Program-made: the position numbers and the translations under genes
From: Halolamina sp. CBA1230
GTDB taxonomy: Archaea > Halobacteriota > Halobacteria > Halobacteriales > Haloferacaceae
Reading direction: 5' to 3'
Assembly (NCBI RefSeq): GCF_002025255.2
Contig: NZ_CP054587.1
Location: 1,674,001 to 1,738,000, forward strand
Length of the DNA stretch: 64,000 nt
The notes under the pieces: model-generated
The model's input: only the letters and a program-made list of their open reading frames with translations
Databases searched by the model: none
Told to the model about the DNA's origin: nothing
Part shown: piece after piece, positions 3,280 to 44,889 of the stretch
Layout: every line of letters starts with the position of its first letter
Position numbering within the stretch: position 1 is the stretch's first letter

Positions 3280-3347
3280 TTGCCTTCGAAGAAGGAGCGA
3301 GCTGTCTCACCCCTGAAGGAGCGAAACAGCTATGAGTATGAATTAGC

Positions 3348-3619
3348 ATGGTGGAAGACACGCGGATCGTCGGCGAGCGAGGGCAAGTCACCTCCCGAAG
3401 TCACTTCGGGAACGATTCGGAATCCAGGGTGGCGATGAAGTCATTGTCCACGAGGACGAGGAGGGACGGATCGTCGTCGAAAAGGCAGTTACGACGGACG
3501 ACCTCGCGGAGGGATACCGCGTTCGGTCCGAACAGATGGCCGATCTCGCTTCCGAACTCGAGGGTGTGTCCGCAGAGGCCGATTCGACTCTCGGCGACGT
3601 GCCCGAGTGGGAGTCGTAG
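3348..3619 (+). pseudogene. Frameshifted AbrB/MazE-type antitoxin
   Basis: The first 15 codons (MVEDTRIVGERGQVT) match the intact antitoxin at 44525-44797, but one base is missing near 3393 compared with that copy. The frame therefore leaves the SpoVT/AbrB fold at once. The remaining antitoxin sequence (GDEVIVHEDEEG through DVPEWES) continues in the next frame up to the TAG at 3617-3619, with no start codon of its own in that frame. The toxin gene begins at the very next base, exactly as in the intact paralogous pair. Unless recoding occurs, no functional antitoxin is made here. Confidence 0.85.
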
Positions 3620-3967
3620 ATGGACGTCCACCGTGGTGACATTGTCATCGTCGAACTGAATCCGACTCGCGGGTCGGAACAGCGTGGAACCCGTCTGTGT
3701 CTCGTCATCCAGAACGACATCGGGAACGCGAACGCGCCGACAACCATCGTTGTCCCGTTCACGACATCCTTTGACGACCGCTTGTACCCGTTCGAGGTAC
3801 TGGTTCAAGCCGACGAAAGCCCACTCTCAGAGGACTCTGTCGCACCCTGTAGTCAGATTCGTACCGTCTCTATCTCGCAGCGGATTACGGAGAACATCGG
3901 ATCGATCCCCGCGGATCGGATGCGTGAGGTCGACGATTCGCTCGCGTATTCGCTGTGTATTCAGTAG
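3620..3967 (+). CDS. MazF/PemK-family toxin (endoribonuclease)
   Basis: A 115-residue complete MazF/PemK-like protein. The amino end RGDIVIVELNPTRGSEQRGTR contains the usual beta-strand and loop of the family, followed by the PCLVIQND-like strand (here LCLVIQND) and the TTIVVPFT strand. The family cuts mRNA and is normally held inactive by the gene product upstream, which is frameshifted here. It differs from the paralog at 44171-44524 by scattered substitutions and a shorter tail. It may be silent, weakened, or held in check by the antitoxin at 44525-44797. Confidence 0.85.
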   Translation: MDVHRGDIVIVELNPTRGSEQRGTRLCLVIQNDIGNANAPTTIVVPFTTSFDDRLYPFEVLVQADESPLSEDSVAPCSQIRTVSISQRITENIGSIPADRMREVDDSLAYSLCIQ

Positions 3968-4002: not shown

Positions 4003-5392
4003 GTAAGTTAACCCACGGCTAAAGCCGTGGGCTTTCACCATGGACTCCCGCTCTAGCCGAATCCGGCAGGGGTTTGACCCCGTTCGCGTTCAGCATCCCG
4101 GTGTTCAAGCGCACACCTACGGGTGCGCCTCCTTCGCCCCCAGTTTGGTTGCGAAGGAGTCTGTAGCCGATGTTCTTGGCCGCGTTGTAGTCCGCGTGAT
4201 TCTCGTACCCACAGGACTGACAACAGAACGTCTCCTGCGACGGGCGGTTGTCCGCGTGCGTGAACCCACACGACGAACACCGTCGCGATGTGTTCTTCGG
4301 GTTCACCTGTTCGACGTGGATACCGCGTTCATTGGCTTTGTACGAGACGTACTCGTGCAGGCGGCGGAACGCCCACTCGTGGAACTGACGGGCGTTTGGC
4401 ATCCGATCACGGATACCCGTCAGGTTCTCGAAGGCGATTACCGTACAGCCATTCCGAGCGGCTTCCGCGACGAGTTCGTTCGCAACTCGGTGAAGGTACT
4501 GCTCGAACCGGCCCGTCTCCTTGCGCCCAACCGCTTGCACGTTCTCGTGGGCCCACCGCGTTCCACACTCTTGGAGCGATGTGCGGCGTTCGACGTACTC
4601 CTGTCGCCAGTGGGTGAGTTCGTCAGCAGCCCAGAACACGCCGGTCGAGGTGACGGCAATGTTCTCGACCCCGAGATCCACGCCGAGAATCGTTCCATTC
4701 TCGGCTGGGTCGGGATCGTCCACATCCGCCTTTGTTCGGACGTGGAGGTAGAAGTCGCCACGGCGAGAGTGGAGTGTCGCGCCGGTCGTCTCCCATTCGT
4801 CGGAGCAGAGGTACTCCGAGTGGGGCGTGTCACGGTTCTCGTCGGGCAAGACGTACTCGACGGTGACGCGCCCATCGACAGTGGACAGCGACGCGTGGTC
4901 GTCGTGGAAGGTGGCGTTGCGCTGGTTGTATTCACAAAACGGCGTCGTAAACGTCGGCAACGAGGCGTACTCACCATTCGCCCACGTGGCGACCACGCTA
5001 TCGAGCGCATCGACAGCACGGTCACGAGCCGATTGCACGTGGTTGCTGTGGAGTCGCGTCTGCTCGCGTACCTCGTCGTAGGTCATCTCGTGGAGGACGG
5101 ACTTGCGGGTTTCAGCCCATTCGCCGTCCCACGCGGCGTCTACGACGTAGTTCGCGGCCCACAGGAACTCGTCAATCGTCTCCTGAAGCAGGTCCGCCTG
5201 TTCGTCGGTCACATCGAGTTTGACCGGGACGGTGCGGCGGACCTCCATATTCATCACAATACGACCCATGATTAAAAGTATTAATATAGTCCGGTGGGGG
5301 AGTCAGCCTGCCACCAGCAACGGTAGTAATGTAATCAAGCGAACGCGCTTCCTCCCACCCCTAAAGGGGTGGGTTTCCGCGCTGGTACCGCT
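4003..5392 (-). mobile_element. IS200/IS605-type element carrying only tnpB (IS1341-like)
   Basis: The right end is at about 4003, where the minus strand reads ...GTGGGTTAACTTAC, and includes the hairpin CCCACGGC-taaa-GCCGTGGG at 4012-4031. The left-end hairpin CCCACCCC-taaa-GGGGTGGG is at 5354-5373. The sister element at 35748-37138 has the same organisation, and a third copy of the right end is at 61849-61870. No tnpA is present, so movement would need a transposase in trans. The 3' end of tnpB and the right end are where the guide (omega) RNA of TnpB systems is normally encoded. The left boundary is uncertain by a few bases: similarity to the sister element runs to 5397, across the start codon of the next gene. 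Confidence 0.8.
4019..5248 (-). CDS. tnpB: TnpB RNA-guided endonuclease (IS605 OrfB family)
   Basis: A 409-residue TnpB. The three RuvC acidic motifs are all present: GVDLGVEN (about residue 193), FENLTGIR (about 271) and ADYNAAKN (about 352). A four-cysteine zinc finger (CSSCG...CQSCG) lies between the last two. TnpB proteins cut DNA next to a short motif, guided by an RNA from the element's right end, and help the element persist after excision. Start 5248 ([11 protein letters not shown]) was chosen by match to the sister protein at 35764-37008. All catalytic residues are intact, so it is probably active. Confidence 0.9.
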
Positions 5393-21570: not shown

Positions 21571-21864
21571 GGAGAAGCTCACGAAAGCACGTCACTCGAA
21601 CTCCACTACGGTGCGACGGAGCCAACCCCGCCTCACACGCTCGAAGATGGGACGATACGTCGGTATCTCGAAAATCAAAGATTTCGACGACTCGTCGAAA
21701 CGGCCCGGCCGTTTCGATACGACAACTCACACGAAGACACCAAAGGACACGAACTGCACGTCGCACCGGATCCAGACCCGGACAGTATCACGTTCCCCGG
21801 GATGGTCGAACTCTGGGACCGGTTCTGGAACGAAATCCCGAAATCCGAATTCGACGTCGAGTAA
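21571..21864 (+). pseudogene. TumE (DUF6516)-type toxin, amino end missing
   Basis: The frame ending TAA at 21862-21864 reads LHYGATEPT, EDGTIRRY, then RYDNSHEDTKGHEL and FPGMVELWDRFWNE. RYDNSHEDTKGHE and FPG-VEL are shared with the toxin at 41881-43618. No ATG or GTG begins this frame in the right place, and about 30 amino-terminal residues expected for the family are absent. Between RRY and RYDNS there is an extra 18-codon stretch, perhaps an internal duplication. The TumA-like gene follows after 22 bases, the usual toxin-antitoxin order. Confidence 0.65.
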
Positions 21865-21886
21865 GATCATCACCTAGGGTGACACC

Positions 21887-22336
21887 ATGAACGATACCAC
21901 GCCGCCGCTGCATCCGATGGAGCGCGAACAGCTTCGGGCCGAATCAACCCTCGTCGTAACGGTGAAGTCGTCTGCCGAATTTCACGACGACGTCACCGCC
22001 AGCATCGAGACACTTGAACGAGATGCGACGGCGGATTCCACGCCGACGCTCTCGTTCAGCAGCTATGACGACCTCATGGAGACGCTGACACCGCGCGTCC
22101 TCGATCTCATCGAGGCCATCCGCCAGGAAGAGCCGTCGAGTATCAACGAGACTGCCCGGGTTGTCGACCGTGACGTAAAGAACGTCCACGAGGAGCTGAG
22201 TCGGCTTGCCCAGTTGGGAATCATCTTCTTCGAAGAAGTCGGTCAGCGGAAGCGTCCGGTCGTCTGGTTCGATGAACTCGTCATCAACCTCCCGTTCGAT
22301 CCAGAGGCTGGCGACACCGCAGCAGCCGCGCCGTGA
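21887..22336 (+). CDS. TumA-like HTH antitoxin (HVO_A0114 family type)
   Basis: A 149-residue regulator. The amino half has a SFSSYDDLMETLTPRVLDLI segment and then a MarR-like winged helix (EPSSINETARVVDRDVKNVHEELSRLAQLGII) with a wing (GQRKRPVVWFDEL). It is a clear paralog of 43644-44075, which shows the same order of motifs. Such proteins are the antitoxin and repressor partners of TumE toxins. The toxin gene here is degenerate, so this may be an orphan antitoxin. Confidence 0.78.
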   Translation: MNDTTPPLHPMEREQLRAESTLVVTVKSSAEFHDDVTASIETLERDATADSTPTLSFSSYDDLMETLTPRVLDLIEAIRQEEPSSINETARVVDRDVKNVHEELSRLAQLGIIFFEEVGQRKRPVVWFDELVINLPFDPEAGDTAAAAP

Positions 22337-30861: not shown

Positions 30862-30936
30862 TTGACCTCCTCCCGCGCCTAAAGACGCGGGAATCCCACC
30901 ACGGGATTTCGGGCCGGTCGAACCGACCCTCTGGTT

Positions 30937-32175
30937 TCAAGACGCATTCGTTCCAAGCGTCTCTTGCTGGGTGTCAGCATCGGCTTGGCTGTCTTGTGGG
31001 GCGGTCAAACGCCCCCCATCCTCAGCCGAGTCATCGCCATCCATGTGTTCTCTTGAATGGCTCTCTCCACTGAGGTAGCGGTCTGCGATATTTATCGCAC
31101 CGTTCACGTCCGCTTGGTACTCACTCATCCAGCACGCGTCGTTCGGACACGTAAACGTCGCCTGTCGCGGACGATATCCTACCTCACCGCAAGCGTGGCA
31201 CTCCTTCGACGTGTTGCGCGGGTTCACCGTCTCGACGGGAATCCCCTTCTCGACGGCCTTGTAGCGTATCTGCGCGTGGAGTTTAGCGAACCCCCATCCG
31301 TGGAGACGCCGGTTCATGAAGTCGCCGTAGTCCATCGACTCCCGTATGTACGTCAGGTCTTCCAGAACGAGAACGGGGTTCTCGACGGACTCCGCGTACT
31401 CCACGACTTCGCGGGTGACGCGATGGAACACGTCATCTATCTGTTGCCACACGTCGTCCCCGAAGGACTCCGCAATACGCTCGCTTCCGCGCGTCTGGAG
31501 TCGCCGAGTAGCGGTGAAGTAGGTCTTGCGGAGCCGACGAACGGTCTTGCCCTCGTCGGCCCATAGTTCGGGCGCGGTCGGCGAACCGTCGTCGTCGCGG
31601 TGACACACCGTGACGAGTGACGCTTCCCCGATGTCTACTCCGATAGGCGTCCGTTCTTCGGCAGACACCTCGGAGCGTTCCTCCACGTCGCGGGTGGCAG
31701 TGACGTGGAGATACCACGTCCCGTCCCGCTCGAACAGCCGACTCTCACCCATCGTGGCGTCTCCCGCTTGCAACGCTTCCAGCCAGTCCCGCTGTTCGGG
31801 ATTCGGTTGTGCTGGCATCCAGAGGTGGTAGTCCTCGTGATGCGGGATTTTGACGTACCACTCGATAGCGTTCTCGGGCTTATGGTCAAGTCGTACCCCT
31901 TCGTTGGTGAAGCGAACAGGGTGGTCGTCGTGCAGTTCGCCCGCGTTGTAGGTCGTCGTGAGTTGCGGGACGTACTTCTTGAGCGCGTTTTTCGCGTACC
32001 CGCTCAGGTCGTAGTTGACCACCACGTCGTTCGCTTCGGGCTGGGTGGTACATCGGGCGTCGAAGGCGTCTTGGAGGGCACGCTGGTACGCTTCTCGCGT
32101 CTCTCGGAGTTTCTGCCGCTTGTGGGCGTTCGGCTCCACAAGTTTGAGTTCGAGCGTCTTCGTGAGTTCAGTCAC
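30937..32175 (-). CDS. tnpB: TnpB RNA-guided endonuclease
   Basis: A 412-residue TnpB of a different subgroup from the proteins at 4019 and 35764. The RuvC motifs are GVDIGEAS (about residue 180), LEDLTYIRE (about 271) and ADVNGAINIA (about 358), with a zinc finger CHACG...CPNDAC between the last two. The acidic tail of about 50 residues is unusually long. Its ATG overlaps the end of tnpA by 4 bases. All catalytic residues are present. Confidence 0.9.
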   Translation of the reverse strand: MTELTKTLELKLVEPNAHKRQKLRETREAYQRALQDAFDARCTTQPEANDVVVNYDLSGYAKNALKKYVPQLTTTYNAGELHDDHPVRFTNEGVRLDHKPENAIEWYVKIPHHEDYHLWMPAQPNPEQRDWLEALQAGDATMGESRLFERDGTWYLHVTATRDVEERSEVSAEERTPIGVDIGEASLVTVCHRDDDGSPTAPELWADEGKTVRRLRKTYFTATRRLQTRGSERIAESFGDDVWQQIDDVFHRVTREVVEYAESVENPVLVLEDLTYIRESMDYGDFMNRRLHGWGFAKLHAQIRYKAVEKGIPVETVNPRNTSKECHACGEVGYRPRQATFTCPNDACWMSEYQADVNGAINIADRYLSGESHSREHMDGDDSAEDGGRLTAPQDSQADADTQQETLGTNAS

Positions 32176-32561
32176 GAATCGCCCTCCTTGTGTTGCTGGA
32201 TGTAGTTCTCGACCGTCTCACTCGAAACGTGCCCGGCGGTCCCTGCGTAGTATCCTCGCGCCCATCCGATTTTCTCGTCGTCGTGGTCGGCATATCGGTG
32301 GTTGTACTTGCGCGAGGAGATGCCCTTGAACCAGTTGGCGAGGAGCGCCGGTTCGTTCTTCGGTGGGCTACTGACGAACAGGTGAACGTGGTCGGGCTGT
32401 ACAGTGAGATCGAGTATTTCGACGCCTTTGTCGTCGGCTATTTCGTGGAGGATGGACCGGACACGGCTGGCGACCTCGTTGACGAGTACCGGCTGCCGGT
32501 ACTTCGGCAACCACACTATGTGGTAGTTGAGGTTGTAGGTCGCGTGCCGTGTGGTCTTCAT
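32172..32561 (-). CDS. tnpA: TnpA, IS200-type Y1 (HUH) transposase
   Basis: A 129-residue single-strand transposase. The HUH pair lies in QPDHVHLFVS (about 56-65), and the catalytic tyrosine in SETVENYIQQH (about 115-124). The length and opening TRHATYNLNYHIVW are standard for the family. TnpA cuts and joins single-stranded ends at subterminal hairpins, giving scarless excision. It overlaps tnpB by 4 bases. As the only TnpA in the window it could move the tnpB-only element at 42035-43490, which shares the end sequence. Confidence 0.93.
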   Translation of the reverse strand: MKTTRHATYNLNYHIVWLPKYRQPVLVNEVASRVRSILHEIADDKGVEILDLTVQPDHVHLFVSSPPKNEPALLANWFKGISSRKYNHRYADHDDEKIGWARGYYAGTAGHVSSETVENYIQQHKEGDS

Positions 32562-32996
32562 CCGCGTTGTATACTATGGTTCGTCGACGTCTTAATACTG
32601 CCGGTAGAACGGTGGGAAATCCAGCCGTGACGTCGTCGGTGGGTGTGTAGGCTATTGTCCGATTGACCCCCGCCTAAAGACGGGGGTATGCGCTCGTATC
32701 TTTATCATCGGCGACGCCGGTTTCTGATCACGGTTGCAGTCGACGGGGCTGCTGTGAAAGGAGGCAGTACGACACTCCATGTTACCCCGATGTACGGGAG
32801 GTGGGTGGTGAATTCCTTGTTGGGGCGAGAAGGGTTCGGACGATTGAACGGTGGTTGGTGTCGGAGTTGTCGGATTCATCCCCGCCCTGAACAGTAGTTG
32901 CCGAATCAAATCTTGTTCCGTACTAACCGAGACGTTGAGTTCGCGCATTTCACGATCGTAGCGGATTTCGCTGTGACAGATTCAGTGAGAGAGCGA

Positions 32997-41843: not shown

Positions 41844-42034
41844 ACGTTTATGTTGATGGGGCCGAGTCCATCAGACGTCGATGGGCGCCCGGGTCATCCG
41901 AAATTTCACGAATACCTTCGATGGCCATGTCGAACGGCAGACAATCATCAAGACGGGCGATCCGGCGTCCCCATCCGGCTACAAGTATTCGCTCCACTTC
42001 GGCACGCTAGACGGTGAAACAGTACTCCGGTACG

Positions 42035-43490
42035 TTGACATCCTCCTCCGGCTAAAGCCGGAGGAATCCCGAGAGTTGGGATATTAGGGTTTGCAGTCTC
42101 CCTGTTCTCTCGGTGTGAATCGTCCGCTTTCGCGGTCGAACAGGAAGACTCCGGGCTGTGCCAACCAGCCGTTACTCATATCCCCGGTCGGGGGACTCTG
42201 AGTTATCTTTCGACGGATGTTCACCGCACCATTCACATCTGCATTCATCGTCGTCTCGCACGATGAACAGACGTACAGCCCTCGCTCCACGCGGTTGCTG
42301 TCCCGAATCTGCTCGCAACACGAACACGCCTTGCTCGTGTTCTTCTCGTCTACGCGGTCAACGAGGATGCCGTGTTCCTCGGCCTTGTATTCGAGGAGAC
42401 GGGCGAACCGGTCGAACTCCCAGCCGTGCAACTTCTTGTTCCCCGACGCACCCCAGTTCCGCGAGTCACCGTTCTCATCCTCGCGGATGTCACTGAGGTC
42501 GCCAACCGCTATCTTCTCCACGCTTTCTTCAACACACCGCTCAACGATGTGCTTGCTGAGGGTGTGAAGGAAGTGGTCTTTGCGTCGGGAGAGTTTCTGC
42601 CGAGCCTCCCGCGCTCGCTTCGACGGGCCGTTCTCGCCTTCGGTCTGGTACTCTTCGCGGGTGAAGTAGTGTTTGTCCTCTTTCAGCACGTTCCCCGGAT
42701 ACAGTTCACTCGCGCCATCTTCGTAGTCGATGGCGAGGTAGTTGCTAATTCCGAGGTCGATACCCGCCGTGTTATCACCCGGTGCGTCTTCGACTGGAAT
42801 CTCTTTCTTACAGACGAGGTGGAGTTCCCACTCGTCGCCGTTCCAGATGGCACGCACCTGCTGGATGTTCTCGACTTCTACGTCAGAGCGAGTTTCGTAC
42901 TCGGCGAGGATGAAGTCAGATCGACTCTCTTTCAGGTTGAAGCCCTTCGAGAGGCGAAGTTGGCCGTGTTTGTCGTCGTGCTTGATAGCTCGTTTCTTCC
43001 ACGTGACGGTGGAGCGAGGGTGGTCGTCGCCACGTTTCCGGTAGCCCGGTGGGTTGTTACCGTCGTCGGAGTTGTACCAACCGTTGAACGCCTCAGCAAG
43101 TTCTTCGAGAACTCGCTGACTTGACTGAGAATGCAGGTCACTGTAGCGTTCGTGGTCTTTCAACTCCGATTTCAGTTCGGCTTCGTCGGGTATCTCGCCG
43201 TCGTCGTCCCACCGTTGTTGGATGTAGTAGCGTCCGACGTTCCACAGTTTGGATGCGGAGAACCCGCACTGGTCAAAGTCGTCACGAACCTGTTGGTGGT
43301 TCGTGATGCGTGCGACGTAGGTGCGGGTCGTCTCCAGCATCGAGCTGACCTCATAATACGTTATGGGAGTTTAATTATTAAAACCAACGGCCGGGTGTTG
43401 AATATCCAGTTGGGGTGTCGTCGGTGGATTGTCGGTCAGGGTGTCAGATTCATCCCGCGCCTAAAGGCGCGGGTATTCTCCTTGTTTTTT
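42035..43490 (-). mobile_element. IS200/IS605-type element carrying only tnpB, inside tumE
   Basis: 1456 bp. The right end starts at 42035 (minus strand ends ...GGATGTCAA) with the hairpin CCTCCGGC-taaa-GCCGGAGG at about 42047-42066. The left-end hairpin CCCGCG-cctaaagg-CGCGGG is at about 43454-43473. The interrupted reading frame fixes both boundaries. On the element's strand the left flank is GAATTAT, so insertion is 3' of TTAT, close to the TTAC used by IS608, and the right end closes with TCAA as in IS608. There is no target duplication and no tnpA. Confidence 0.87.
42084..43340 (-). CDS. tnpB: TnpB-family protein with unusual RuvC-II motif
   Basis: A 418-residue TnpB of a third subgroup. 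RuvC-I is GIDLGISN (about 193) and RuvC-III is ADVNGAVN (about 369), with the zinc finger CSCCEQ...CSSCE. Where the other three TnpBs have F/L-E-D/N-L, this one reads VGDLSDIRED (about 277), with Gly in place of the catalytic Glu. TnpB groups with a relocated Glu have been described, and the Glu of IRED could serve. The gene is otherwise complete. Confidence 0.85.
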   Translation of the reverse strand: MLETTRTYVARITNHQQVRDDFDQCGFSASKLWNVGRYYIQQRWDDDGEIPDEAELKSELKDHERYSDLHSQSSQRVLEELAEAFNGWYNSDDGNNPPGYRKRGDDHPRSTVTWKKRAIKHDDKHGQLRLSKGFNLKESRSDFILAEYETRSDVEVENIQQVRAIWNGDEWELHLVCKKEIPVEDAPGDNTAGIDLGISNYLAIDYEDGASELYPGNVLKEDKHYFTREEYQTEGENGPSKRAREARQKLSRRKDHFLHTLSKHIVERCVEESVEKIAVGDLSDIREDENGDSRNWGASGNKKLHGWEFDRFARLLEYKAEEHGILVDRVDEKNTSKACSCCEQIRDSNRVERGLYVCSSCETTMNADVNGAVNIRRKITQSPPTGDMSNGWLAQPGVFLFDRESGRFTPREQGDCKP

Positions 43491-43643
43491 ATAATTCCCA
43501 CGAAGACACAAAGGGCCACGAGCGCCATACTACCGACGAGGTTGAGGAAATCGAATTCCCTGGGATAGTCGAACTCGTCGAACGCTTCGAGGAGGAAGTC
43601 GCCGAACGCCGACCGTGAACTACCCGACGCCGCCACCGCAACA

Positions 43644-44170: not shown

Positions 44171-44524
44171 TCAAACAGACTGGAGGCCCAAAGAGTACCC
44201 AAGCGCATCGTCGATCTCGTCCATCCGGGCCTCGGGAATCGACCCGATGTTCTCCGTGATCCGCTGCGCGATAGAGACAGTCCGAATCTGACTACAGAGC
44301 GCAACAGAGTCCGCAGAGAGCGGGCTTTCCTCGGCCCGAACCAGGACTTCGAACGGGTACTGGCGATCGTCGAAGGACGTGGTGAACGGGACGACGATGG
44401 TCGTCGGGGCGTTCGCGTTTCCAATATCGTTCTGGACGACGAGACATGGGCGGGTCCCGCGTTGTTCCGAGCCGCGAGTCGGATTCAGTTCGACGATGAC
44501 GATATCGCCACGGTGGACGTCCAT
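44171..44524 (-). CDS. MazF/PemK-family toxin (intact pair)
   Basis: A 117-residue toxin whose first 25 residues are identical to the one at 3620-3967, with scattered changes later (for example PCLVVQND for LCLVIQND). It begins immediately after the antitoxin stop codon (TAG then ATG). The core strands of the MazF fold (GDIVIVEL, TTIVVPFT, QIRTVS) are all present. Likely a sequence-specific mRNA endonuclease. Confidence 0.87.
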   Translation of the reverse strand: MDVHRGDIVIVELNPTRGSEQRGTRPCLVVQNDIGNANAPTTIVVPFTTSFDDRQYPFEVLVRAEESPLSADSVALCSQIRTVSIAQRITENIGSIPEARMDEIDDALGYSLGLQSV

Positions 44525-44797
44525 CTACGACTCCCACTCGGGCACGTCACCGAGGGCTGCATCGGCCTCCGCCGAGACACCCTCGAGTTCGGAAGCGAGA
44601 TCGGCCATCTGTTCGGAACGGGCGCGGTATCCCTCGGCGAGGTCGTCTTCTGTGACCGCCTTTTCGACGACGATCCGTCCCTCCTCGTCCTCGTGGACGC
44701 GTACTCTATCGCCACCGTGAATCCCGAATCGTTCCCGAAGCTGCTTCGGGAGTGTGACCTGCCCACGCTCACCGACGACTCGCGTGTCTTCCACCAT
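44525..44797 (-). CDS. AbrB/MazE-type antitoxin
   Basis: A 90-residue antitoxin. A SpoVT/AbrB swapped-hairpin fold (TRVVGERGQVTLPKQLRERFG, DRVRVHEDEEGRIVVEKAV) is followed by an acidic helical tail (RSEQMADLASELEGVSAEAD) for toxin binding. It is the intact counterpart of the frameshifted gene at 3348-3619, and because the toxins are so alike it may neutralise both. Confidence 0.87.
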   Translation of the reverse strand: MVEDTRVVGERGQVTLPKQLRERFGIHGGDRVRVHEDEEGRIVVEKAVTEDDLAEGYRARSEQMADLASELEGVSAEADAALGDVPEWES

Positions 44798-44889
44798 ATG
44801 TATTCATACTCGATTCATATCTATAGATGTTTCGCTCCCTGGCAACGTGAGTCGGTTTGCTGACTACTCGAGAAAGGCTATCTTGTCCA

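What the first reader, a model, noticed from the sequence alone, without database searches (positions are those of the whole stretch)
41881..43618. TumE toxin gene reversibly split by a scarless IS200/IS605 element
Bases 41881-42034 and 43491-43618 join to exactly 94 codons (with stop) giving one continuous DUF6516-type toxin, so the 1456-bp element can be removed without any base change. IS200/IS605 elements excise precisely through TnpA, and a matching TnpA is encoded 10 kb away (32172-32561) on an element with the same TCAA end. The toxin could therefore be switched back on by excision, with the antitoxin gene (43644) kept intact downstream: a possible phase switch, or a toxin-silencing event favoured by selection.
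Basis: partly seen in the sequence, partly recalled or inferred. Interest (0 to 1): 0.8.

Follow-up and report, generated by a model that had tools for sequence, protein, structure and literature searches.

The report
Toxin gene split by insertion sequence
In a salt-loving archaeon a small jumping element has landed cleanly inside one toxin gene of a toxin-antitoxin pair and broken it; this is an ordinary insertion, and nothing found here shows that it acts as an on-off switch.

Summary
A 1456-bp IS200/IS605-family element (42035-43490, minus strand, tnpB only) sits inside a tumE-like (DUF6516) gene without duplication or loss of bases. I did not hand joined toxin flanks to any tool. In 23 of 29 order-wide antitoxin loci other than the window's own, both tumE halves lie in one frame with exactly one codon between them, and the genome's own second copy of the pair is uninterrupted at the same base. 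Of 19 end-to-end copies, 18 follow TTAT directly (one is shifted by a base) and 18 end in TGTCAA.

The switch is not supported. The element has no tnpA and is single-copy. The cited TnpA belongs to elements lying after TGAT, although a 95%-identical TnpA elsewhere lies in one after TTAT. No empty allele was seen in this one assembly. The element's own TnpB and reRNA, whose guide would be tumE sequence, should act against loss. Toxin loss with the antitoxin kept recurs (frameshift, deletion, truncation), so a tolerated or favoured knockout is the better reading.

Verdict: new member of a known kind, interest 0.3. A TnpB drive against intact tumE alleles is not excluded.

The parts
41881..42034 (+). 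5' part of the interrupted tumE-like (DUF6516) gene
   Evidence: PF20126 profile 5-41, 17.4 bits, below cut-off alone; 46-51 residues aligned at 78-87% to L105, L106, L040
43491..43618 (+). 3' part of the interrupted tumE-like gene, stop codon included
   Evidence: PF20126 profile 46-80, 18.8 bits, below cut-off alone; 76-85% to L105, L106, L040
42035..43490 (-). IS200/IS605-family element, tnpB only, 1456 bp
   Evidence: Only end-to-end copy in the own genome; end-to-end relatives in other genomes
43491..43494 (-). TTAT target next to the left end
   Evidence: TTAT before the left end in 18 of 19 end-to-end copies, shifted by one base in the other
43454..43473 (-). left-end hairpin; GAATA directly 5' of it (43474-43478)
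   Evidence: sequence
42045..42064 (-). right-end hairpin, 10 nt before the TCAA end (42035-42038)
   Evidence: sequence
42084..43340 (-). tnpB, 418 aa, with D195, G280 at the usual Glu site, E332 and D368
   Evidence: NF040570 190.7 bits, cut-off 100; PF07282 and PF01385 over cut-off; residues conserved
42044..42208 (-). sot0042 RNA (RF02656): reRNA/omega-RNA scaffold overlapping the tnpB 3' end
   Evidence: cmscan 93.1 bits, gathering 88, model 1-174 of 174
42019..42034 (-). predicted reRNA guide: 16 nt beyond the right end, antisense to the tumE 5' part
   Evidence: position relative to the right end, by the ISDra2 scheme (passages of PMC8612924); exact only here in the genome
43644..44075 (+). 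HVO_A0114-type partner (putative antitoxin), 143 aa
   Evidence: PF25212 100.9 bits, cut-off 27.6
32172..32561 (-). tnpA (Y1 transposase) of another element, candidate trans-acting transposase
   Evidence: NF033573 155.6 bits and PF01797 130.3 bits; two more copies in the genome, 97% and 91%
30862..32703 (-). tnpA-tnpB element lying after TGAT and ending in TCAA
   Evidence: edges shared with copies L046 and L047

Best explanation
A non-autonomous, tnpB-only IS200/IS605 element (IS1341-type) transposed into a TTAT on the antisense strand of a tumE-like toxin gene in a Halolamina species. Shown by sequence: exact ends, no duplication, the gene otherwise in frame, the partner gene open. Inferred: the toxin is off while the HVO_A0114-type antitoxin can still be made; the insertion was carried out by a TnpA acting in trans; the element's TnpB and overlapping reRNA, whose guide is read from the neighbouring tumE sequence, would cut any empty allele and restore the element, so it stabilises rather than switches. 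The insertion is a simple knockout, tolerated or mildly favoured because losing a toxin while keeping its antitoxin is harmless.
For: Exact ends and frame. TnpB and sot0042 RNA intact; TnpB related to solved TnpB and Cas12f structures. The guide matches only its own site exactly, with no one-mismatch site in the genome. The halves show no marked decay: nucleotide differences in synonymous versus non-synonymous codons, window against L105, are 17 v 12 (5' half) and 14 v 7 (3' half), against 15 v 11 and 10 v 14 between the two intact copies L105 and L106. Toxin lost with antitoxin kept elsewhere: frames differ in the own second copy; a tumE-sized stretch of about 260 bp absent from L107 relative to L106; 3' half only near window 21.7-22.3 kb; 5 of 29 order-wide loci without either half. 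The genome is rich in such elements: 50 TnpB C-terminal domain matches.
Against: No measurement of transposition, TnpB activity, RNA or toxicity. The usual RuvC-II glutamate is a glycine in this TnpB; its activity rests on an alternative glutamate being used. The TnpA that moved it is not identified. Toxicity of haloarchaeal TumE is not shown; the published tests used gammaproteobacterial pairs (passages of PMC10584680). Some loci without tumE may have been reached by divergence rather than loss.
Confidence: 0.85

Rival explanations
1. Phase switch: TnpA supplied in trans excises the element often enough to turn the toxin on again in part of the population.
For: The family excises precisely, shown for ISDra2 with TnpA in trans restoring a reporter gene (passages of PMC2806898). 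Three related TnpA elements in the genome, and a 95%-identical TnpA elsewhere in an element after TTAT. Right-end spacer 10 nt in both elements, 9 of 10 bases alike; left-end spacer 17 nt in both.
Against: No empty allele in the assembly: the antitoxin search finds this copy and a 90% second copy. Left-end guide and target differ (TTAT/GAATA v TGAT/GCATA). No other exact left end of this type in the genome. TnpB is expected to restore lost copies.
Confidence: 0.05
2. Adaptive silencing: the insertion rose because it removes the cost of the toxin while the antitoxin stays.
For: Recurrent toxin loss with antitoxin kept.
Against: Same pattern expected if toxin loss is neutral and antitoxin loss alone is lethal. 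No population data. Four other tumE genes in the genome look open.
Confidence: 0.3
3. RNA-guided drive: TnpB with a tumE-derived guide cuts intact tumE alleles on other genome copies or incoming DNA and spreads the toxin-null, antitoxin-plus allele.
For: Guide is tumE sequence. TnpB-driven spread of IS between plasmid copies is reported (abstract of PMC11870625). One of four uninterrupted relatives printed, L106, has TTAT at the site.
Against: Guide-matching relatives diverge: the own second copy has 3 mismatches in 16 and TTGT instead of TTAT. L105 and L041 also have TTGT. No second species with the insertion was seen; 29 element relatives gave no split tumE.
Confidence: 0.1
4. Assembly artefact.
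For: None found.
Against: Canonical target and ends; element single-copy, so no collapsed repeat; assembly of 4 contigs, 99.92% complete.
Confidence: 0.02

Closest known systems
IS200/IS605 elements ISDra2 and IS608
   Same: Insertion 3' of a short target, subterminal hairpins, no duplication, right end TCAA, TnpB with overlapping reRNA (target and TnpB scheme from passages of PMC2806898 and PMC8612924; IS608 details recalled)
   Different: No tnpA in this element; target TTAT; glycine at the usual RuvC-II glutamate
Haloarchaeal IS200/IS605 elements with sotRNA/omega-RNA (RF02656)
   Same: sot0042 family RNA at the 3' end of tnpB (passages of PMC12558985)
   Different: This copy lies inside a toxin gene, so its guide is toxin-gene sequence
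TumE-TumA toxin-antitoxin superfamily (PMC10584680, passages)
   Same: DUF6516 toxin beside a DNA-binding-type partner
   Different: Partner is HVO_A0114-type (PF25212); toxicity of this haloarchaeal type not shown; this copy is broken
TnpB gene drive of IS200/605 in plasmids (PMC11870625, abstract and outline)
   Same: Insertion-site guide could bias towards filled alleles
   Different: Chromosomal site in an archaeon; no activity data
D-Phi-G TnpBs with alternative RuvC-II glutamate (PMC10711439, section 23 and passages)
   Same: DLG motif at RuvC-I and ExxxxxxCxxC glutamate E332
   Different: None known to me; clade placement not tested by a tree

Membership tests
IS200/IS605 family, tnpB-only (IS1341-type) | Defined ends with a fixed target 5' of the left end and no target duplication | tested here: met
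   TTAT in 18 of 19 exactly, TGTCAA in 18 of 19; uninterrupted second copy
IS200/IS605 family, tnpB-only (IS1341-type) | Intact tnpB, no tnpA inside the element | tested here: met
IS200/IS605 family, tnpB-only (IS1341-type) | Subterminal hairpins at both ends | tested here: met
   read; not folded by an energy model
IS200/IS605 family, tnpB-only (IS1341-type) | Mobility by a Y1 TnpA | not testable with these tools
   candidate TnpAs present; compatibility inferred only
TnpB-reRNA RNA-guided nuclease | RuvC catalytic triad | tested here: inconclusive
   D195 30/30, usual Glu site G 30/30, E332 30/30, D368 29/30 of the 30 proteins aligned; 3 of 32 relatives had no long frame and were dropped
TnpB-reRNA RNA-guided nuclease | Overlapping RNA ending at the right end | tested here: met
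   RF02656 full-length match
TumE (PF20126) | Profile match over the cut-off | tested here: inconclusive
   each half alone below the cut-off (17.4 and 18.8 v 23.4 bits), in consecutive profile parts; the whole gene was not scanned because flanks were not joined
TumE-TumA type toxin-antitoxin pair | Adjacent antitoxin-type partner gene | tested here: met
   PF25212 over the cut-off; both halves beside the partner in 23 of 29 other loci
TumE-TumA type toxin-antitoxin pair | Toxicity neutralised by the partner | not testable with these tools
   needs a bench test
Phase-variable switch | Both alleles coexist in a population | not testable with these tools
   one assembly only; it holds only the filled allele

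The most novel reading that the evidence does not exclude
By landing in tumE, the element reprogrammed its TnpB with a toxin-gene guide. In a polyploid archaeon this would make it a small gene drive that cuts intact tumE alleles at TTAT-bearing sites and converts them to a toxin-null, antitoxin-plus state, i.e. an RNA-guided anti-toxin element.
Probability: 0.1. Interest if true: 0.6.

Novelty: new member of a known kind. Interest (0 to 1): 0.3.

Why it matters
It shows a clean, datable way in which a cell keeps an antitoxin while losing its toxin. The locus also gives a ready test of whether a TnpB of the alternative-glutamate type, widespread in haloarchaea by this search, protects an insertion that silences a toxin gene. 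If the drive reading held, transposon nucleases would shape the toxin-antitoxin content of polyploid archaea.

Tried and rejected
Chance or mis-assembly of the frame: rejected by the one-codon spacing in 23 of 29 other loci and by the uninterrupted second copy. The own second copy as an intact spare: rejected, since its halves lie in different frames. A partner TnpA with the same left end in this genome: not found (one exact match; 61 matches at up to 2 mismatches against 26 for the reversed control). A search in relatives gave one TTAT case (L149) among the left ends recognised by my pattern, which does not see every left end. Repeated targeting of tumE by this element: flanks (1.5 kb) of 29 relatives hold one tumE pair (L063), beside and not inside the element. 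A general link of TnpB with tumE pairs: 5 of 9 own loci lie within 2 kb of a TnpB domain against 0.73 expected by random placing on the same contigs (P 0.00025, 20,000 draws), but only 2 of 42 loci from elsewhere show a TnpB or TnpA hit with four queries; the test was made after seeing the pattern and ignores clustering in islands. Viral contigs: 2 relatives of the antitoxin (59% and 51%), none of the TnpB. Plasmids: 96 records with antitoxin relatives, all under 60% identity. Searches for print on such a case listed no paper on it; I saw listings only, and the library lacks most subscription journals. The Rfam HIV-1_SD match at 4964-4982 (19 nt) is taken as chance.

Full report
WHERE IT IS. 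The window lies on the main contig of a 3.47-Mb, 4-contig genome (G000:C1:1674001-1738000). The genus is Halolamina by inference: G005 is in the same genus, and its first contig has the same length (878,934) as the Halolamina salifodinae DSM 26232 record behind L136. The species itself is not named by any search.

THE OBSERVATION. The halves of the gene, scanned apart, hit neighbouring parts of PF20126 TumE, each below the cut-off on its own. To test the frame without joining flanks I compared each half with relatives. One search listed 57 antitoxin places in 51 of 392 genomes of the order at E 1e-30; 30 were fetched as loci. In 23 of the 30, both halves lie in one frame with exactly 3 nt between them; 5 have neither half; 2 have the 3' half only, one of them being the window's own locus, cut short by its flank. 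That is the spacing expected if the element splits one codon. The same genome holds a second copy of the pair (C1:426 kb, L040), about 84% alike over both stretches and uninterrupted at the same base.

THE ELEMENT. It is the only end-to-end copy in its genome; the next match is 67% alike over part of it. In 222 of 392 genomes of the order there is a match at 1e-50. I read the ends in 30 copies. Of 19 aligned from the left end (own included), 18 have TTAT directly before it, one has it shifted by one base, and 18 of 19 end in TGTCAA (the exception, L063, has another right end). The 11 others have a different left end, and all end in GATGTCAA (for alignments beginning at bases 7-9 the start was extrapolated without gaps). 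The element holds one gene, a 418-aa TnpB, and a full-length match to the sot0042 RNA. Such RNAs are the omega-RNAs of haloarchaeal TnpB (passages of PMC12558985).

TnpB. In 30 aligned proteins (own plus 29; 3 relatives without a long frame were dropped), D195 is invariant, D368 is present in 29, the usual RuvC-II glutamate site is glycine in 30, and E332, six residues before the zinc-finger CxxC, is invariant. This is the 'Ealt' pattern of PMC10711439, in its D-Phi-G variant (section 23 and passages read). E317 is also invariant, so which glutamate serves is not settled. No tree or structure model was made.

WHICH TnpA. The genome has 9 TnpA-like matches, two of them partial and one of these with a stop. 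In other genomes, of four close relatives of this TnpA (83-95%), three lie after TGAT and one, 95% identical, after TTAT (L148, L150, L155; L149). Spacers agree (17 nt left; 10 nt right, 9 of 10 bases alike), as does GGGATTC before the right hairpin. Mobilisation in trans is therefore possible, but nothing shows it.

SWITCH OR KNOCKOUT. Precise excision by TnpA is real in the family: in D. radiodurans TnpA in trans restored a reporter gene at about 2 in 1000 (passages of PMC2806898). But TnpB cuts the joint left by excision and is proposed to restore the element by repair (passages of PMC8612924). By that scheme the guide here would be the 16 nt at 42019-42034, antisense to tumE. The genome has one exact match (its own site), none with one mismatch, 4 with two and 25 with three, against 3 for the reversed control. 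The second copy is among the three-mismatch sites and has TTGT where TTAT would be needed. I did not look at the target motif of the other sites. The picture favours retention, not switching.

TOXIN LOST, ANTITOXIN KEPT. The second copy's two halves lie in different frames. In G158 (L107) a stretch of about 260 bp, the size and place of tumE in its relative G223 (L106), is absent, with the antitoxin 94% alike. At window 21.7-22.3 kb only a 3' half precedes an HVO_A0114-type gene. Against this, 23 of 29 other loci keep both halves, and the own genome has four other tumE genes that look open (three of the four Pfam hits; L041). The differences between the window's halves and the intact relatives do not show marked decay, so the insertion looks recent, though the counts are small.

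COMPARISON. Each part is a known kind: an IS200/IS605 element with TnpB and omega-RNA, and a TumE-type pair. The published toxicity tests of TumE were on gammaproteobacterial pairs in E. coli (passages of PMC10584680). TnpB acting as a drive between plasmid copies is reported in a preprint (abstract and outline only, PMC11870625). What is particular here is the combination, a TnpB guide made of toxin-gene sequence. Hence interest 0.3, and 0.6 for the drive reading if true.

Noticed in passing
window 42084-43340: TnpB with glycine at the usual RuvC-II glutamate and an invariant glutamate six residues before the zinc finger in 30 of 30 aligned relatives (Fanzor-like Ealt with a DLG motif)
   Followed up: partly
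G000:C1:426097-426695 (L040:4973-5699): Second copy of the tumE pair, about 84% alike, uninterrupted at the site but with its two halves in different frames; partner gene open
   Followed up: yes
window 21700-22330: 3' half of a tumE-like gene without a recognisable 5' half, before an HVO_A0114-type gene
   Followed up: partly
L107 (G158) against L106 (G223): tumE-sized stretch of about 260 bp absent while the antitoxin is kept
   Followed up: partly
own genome: 5 of 9 HVO_A0114 loci lie within 2 kb of a TnpB domain against 0.73 expected by random placing (P 0.00025, after the fact); not seen elsewhere (2 of 42 loci)
   Followed up: partly
L063 and L041 (C3:245 kb): Relatives of this element lie just downstream of other tumE/HVO_A0114 pairs
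   Followed up: no
window 43484-43494: The junction of left end and target reads like a TATA box pointing at the antitoxin gene; a promoter made by insertion is possible but untested
   Followed up: no
window 44171-44797 and 3334-3951: MazF-like and MazE-like genes; the stretch 44193-44811 recurs inverted at 3334-3951, 86% alike
   Followed up: no
window 39538-39662/41356-41480 and 38386-38492/41523-41628: Direct repeats (91% and 81%) on either side of a PIN-like and a DUF7437 gene, as if an island had been inserted
   Followed up: no
window 4964-4982: Rfam HIV-1_SD match of 19 nt, taken as chance
   Followed up: no
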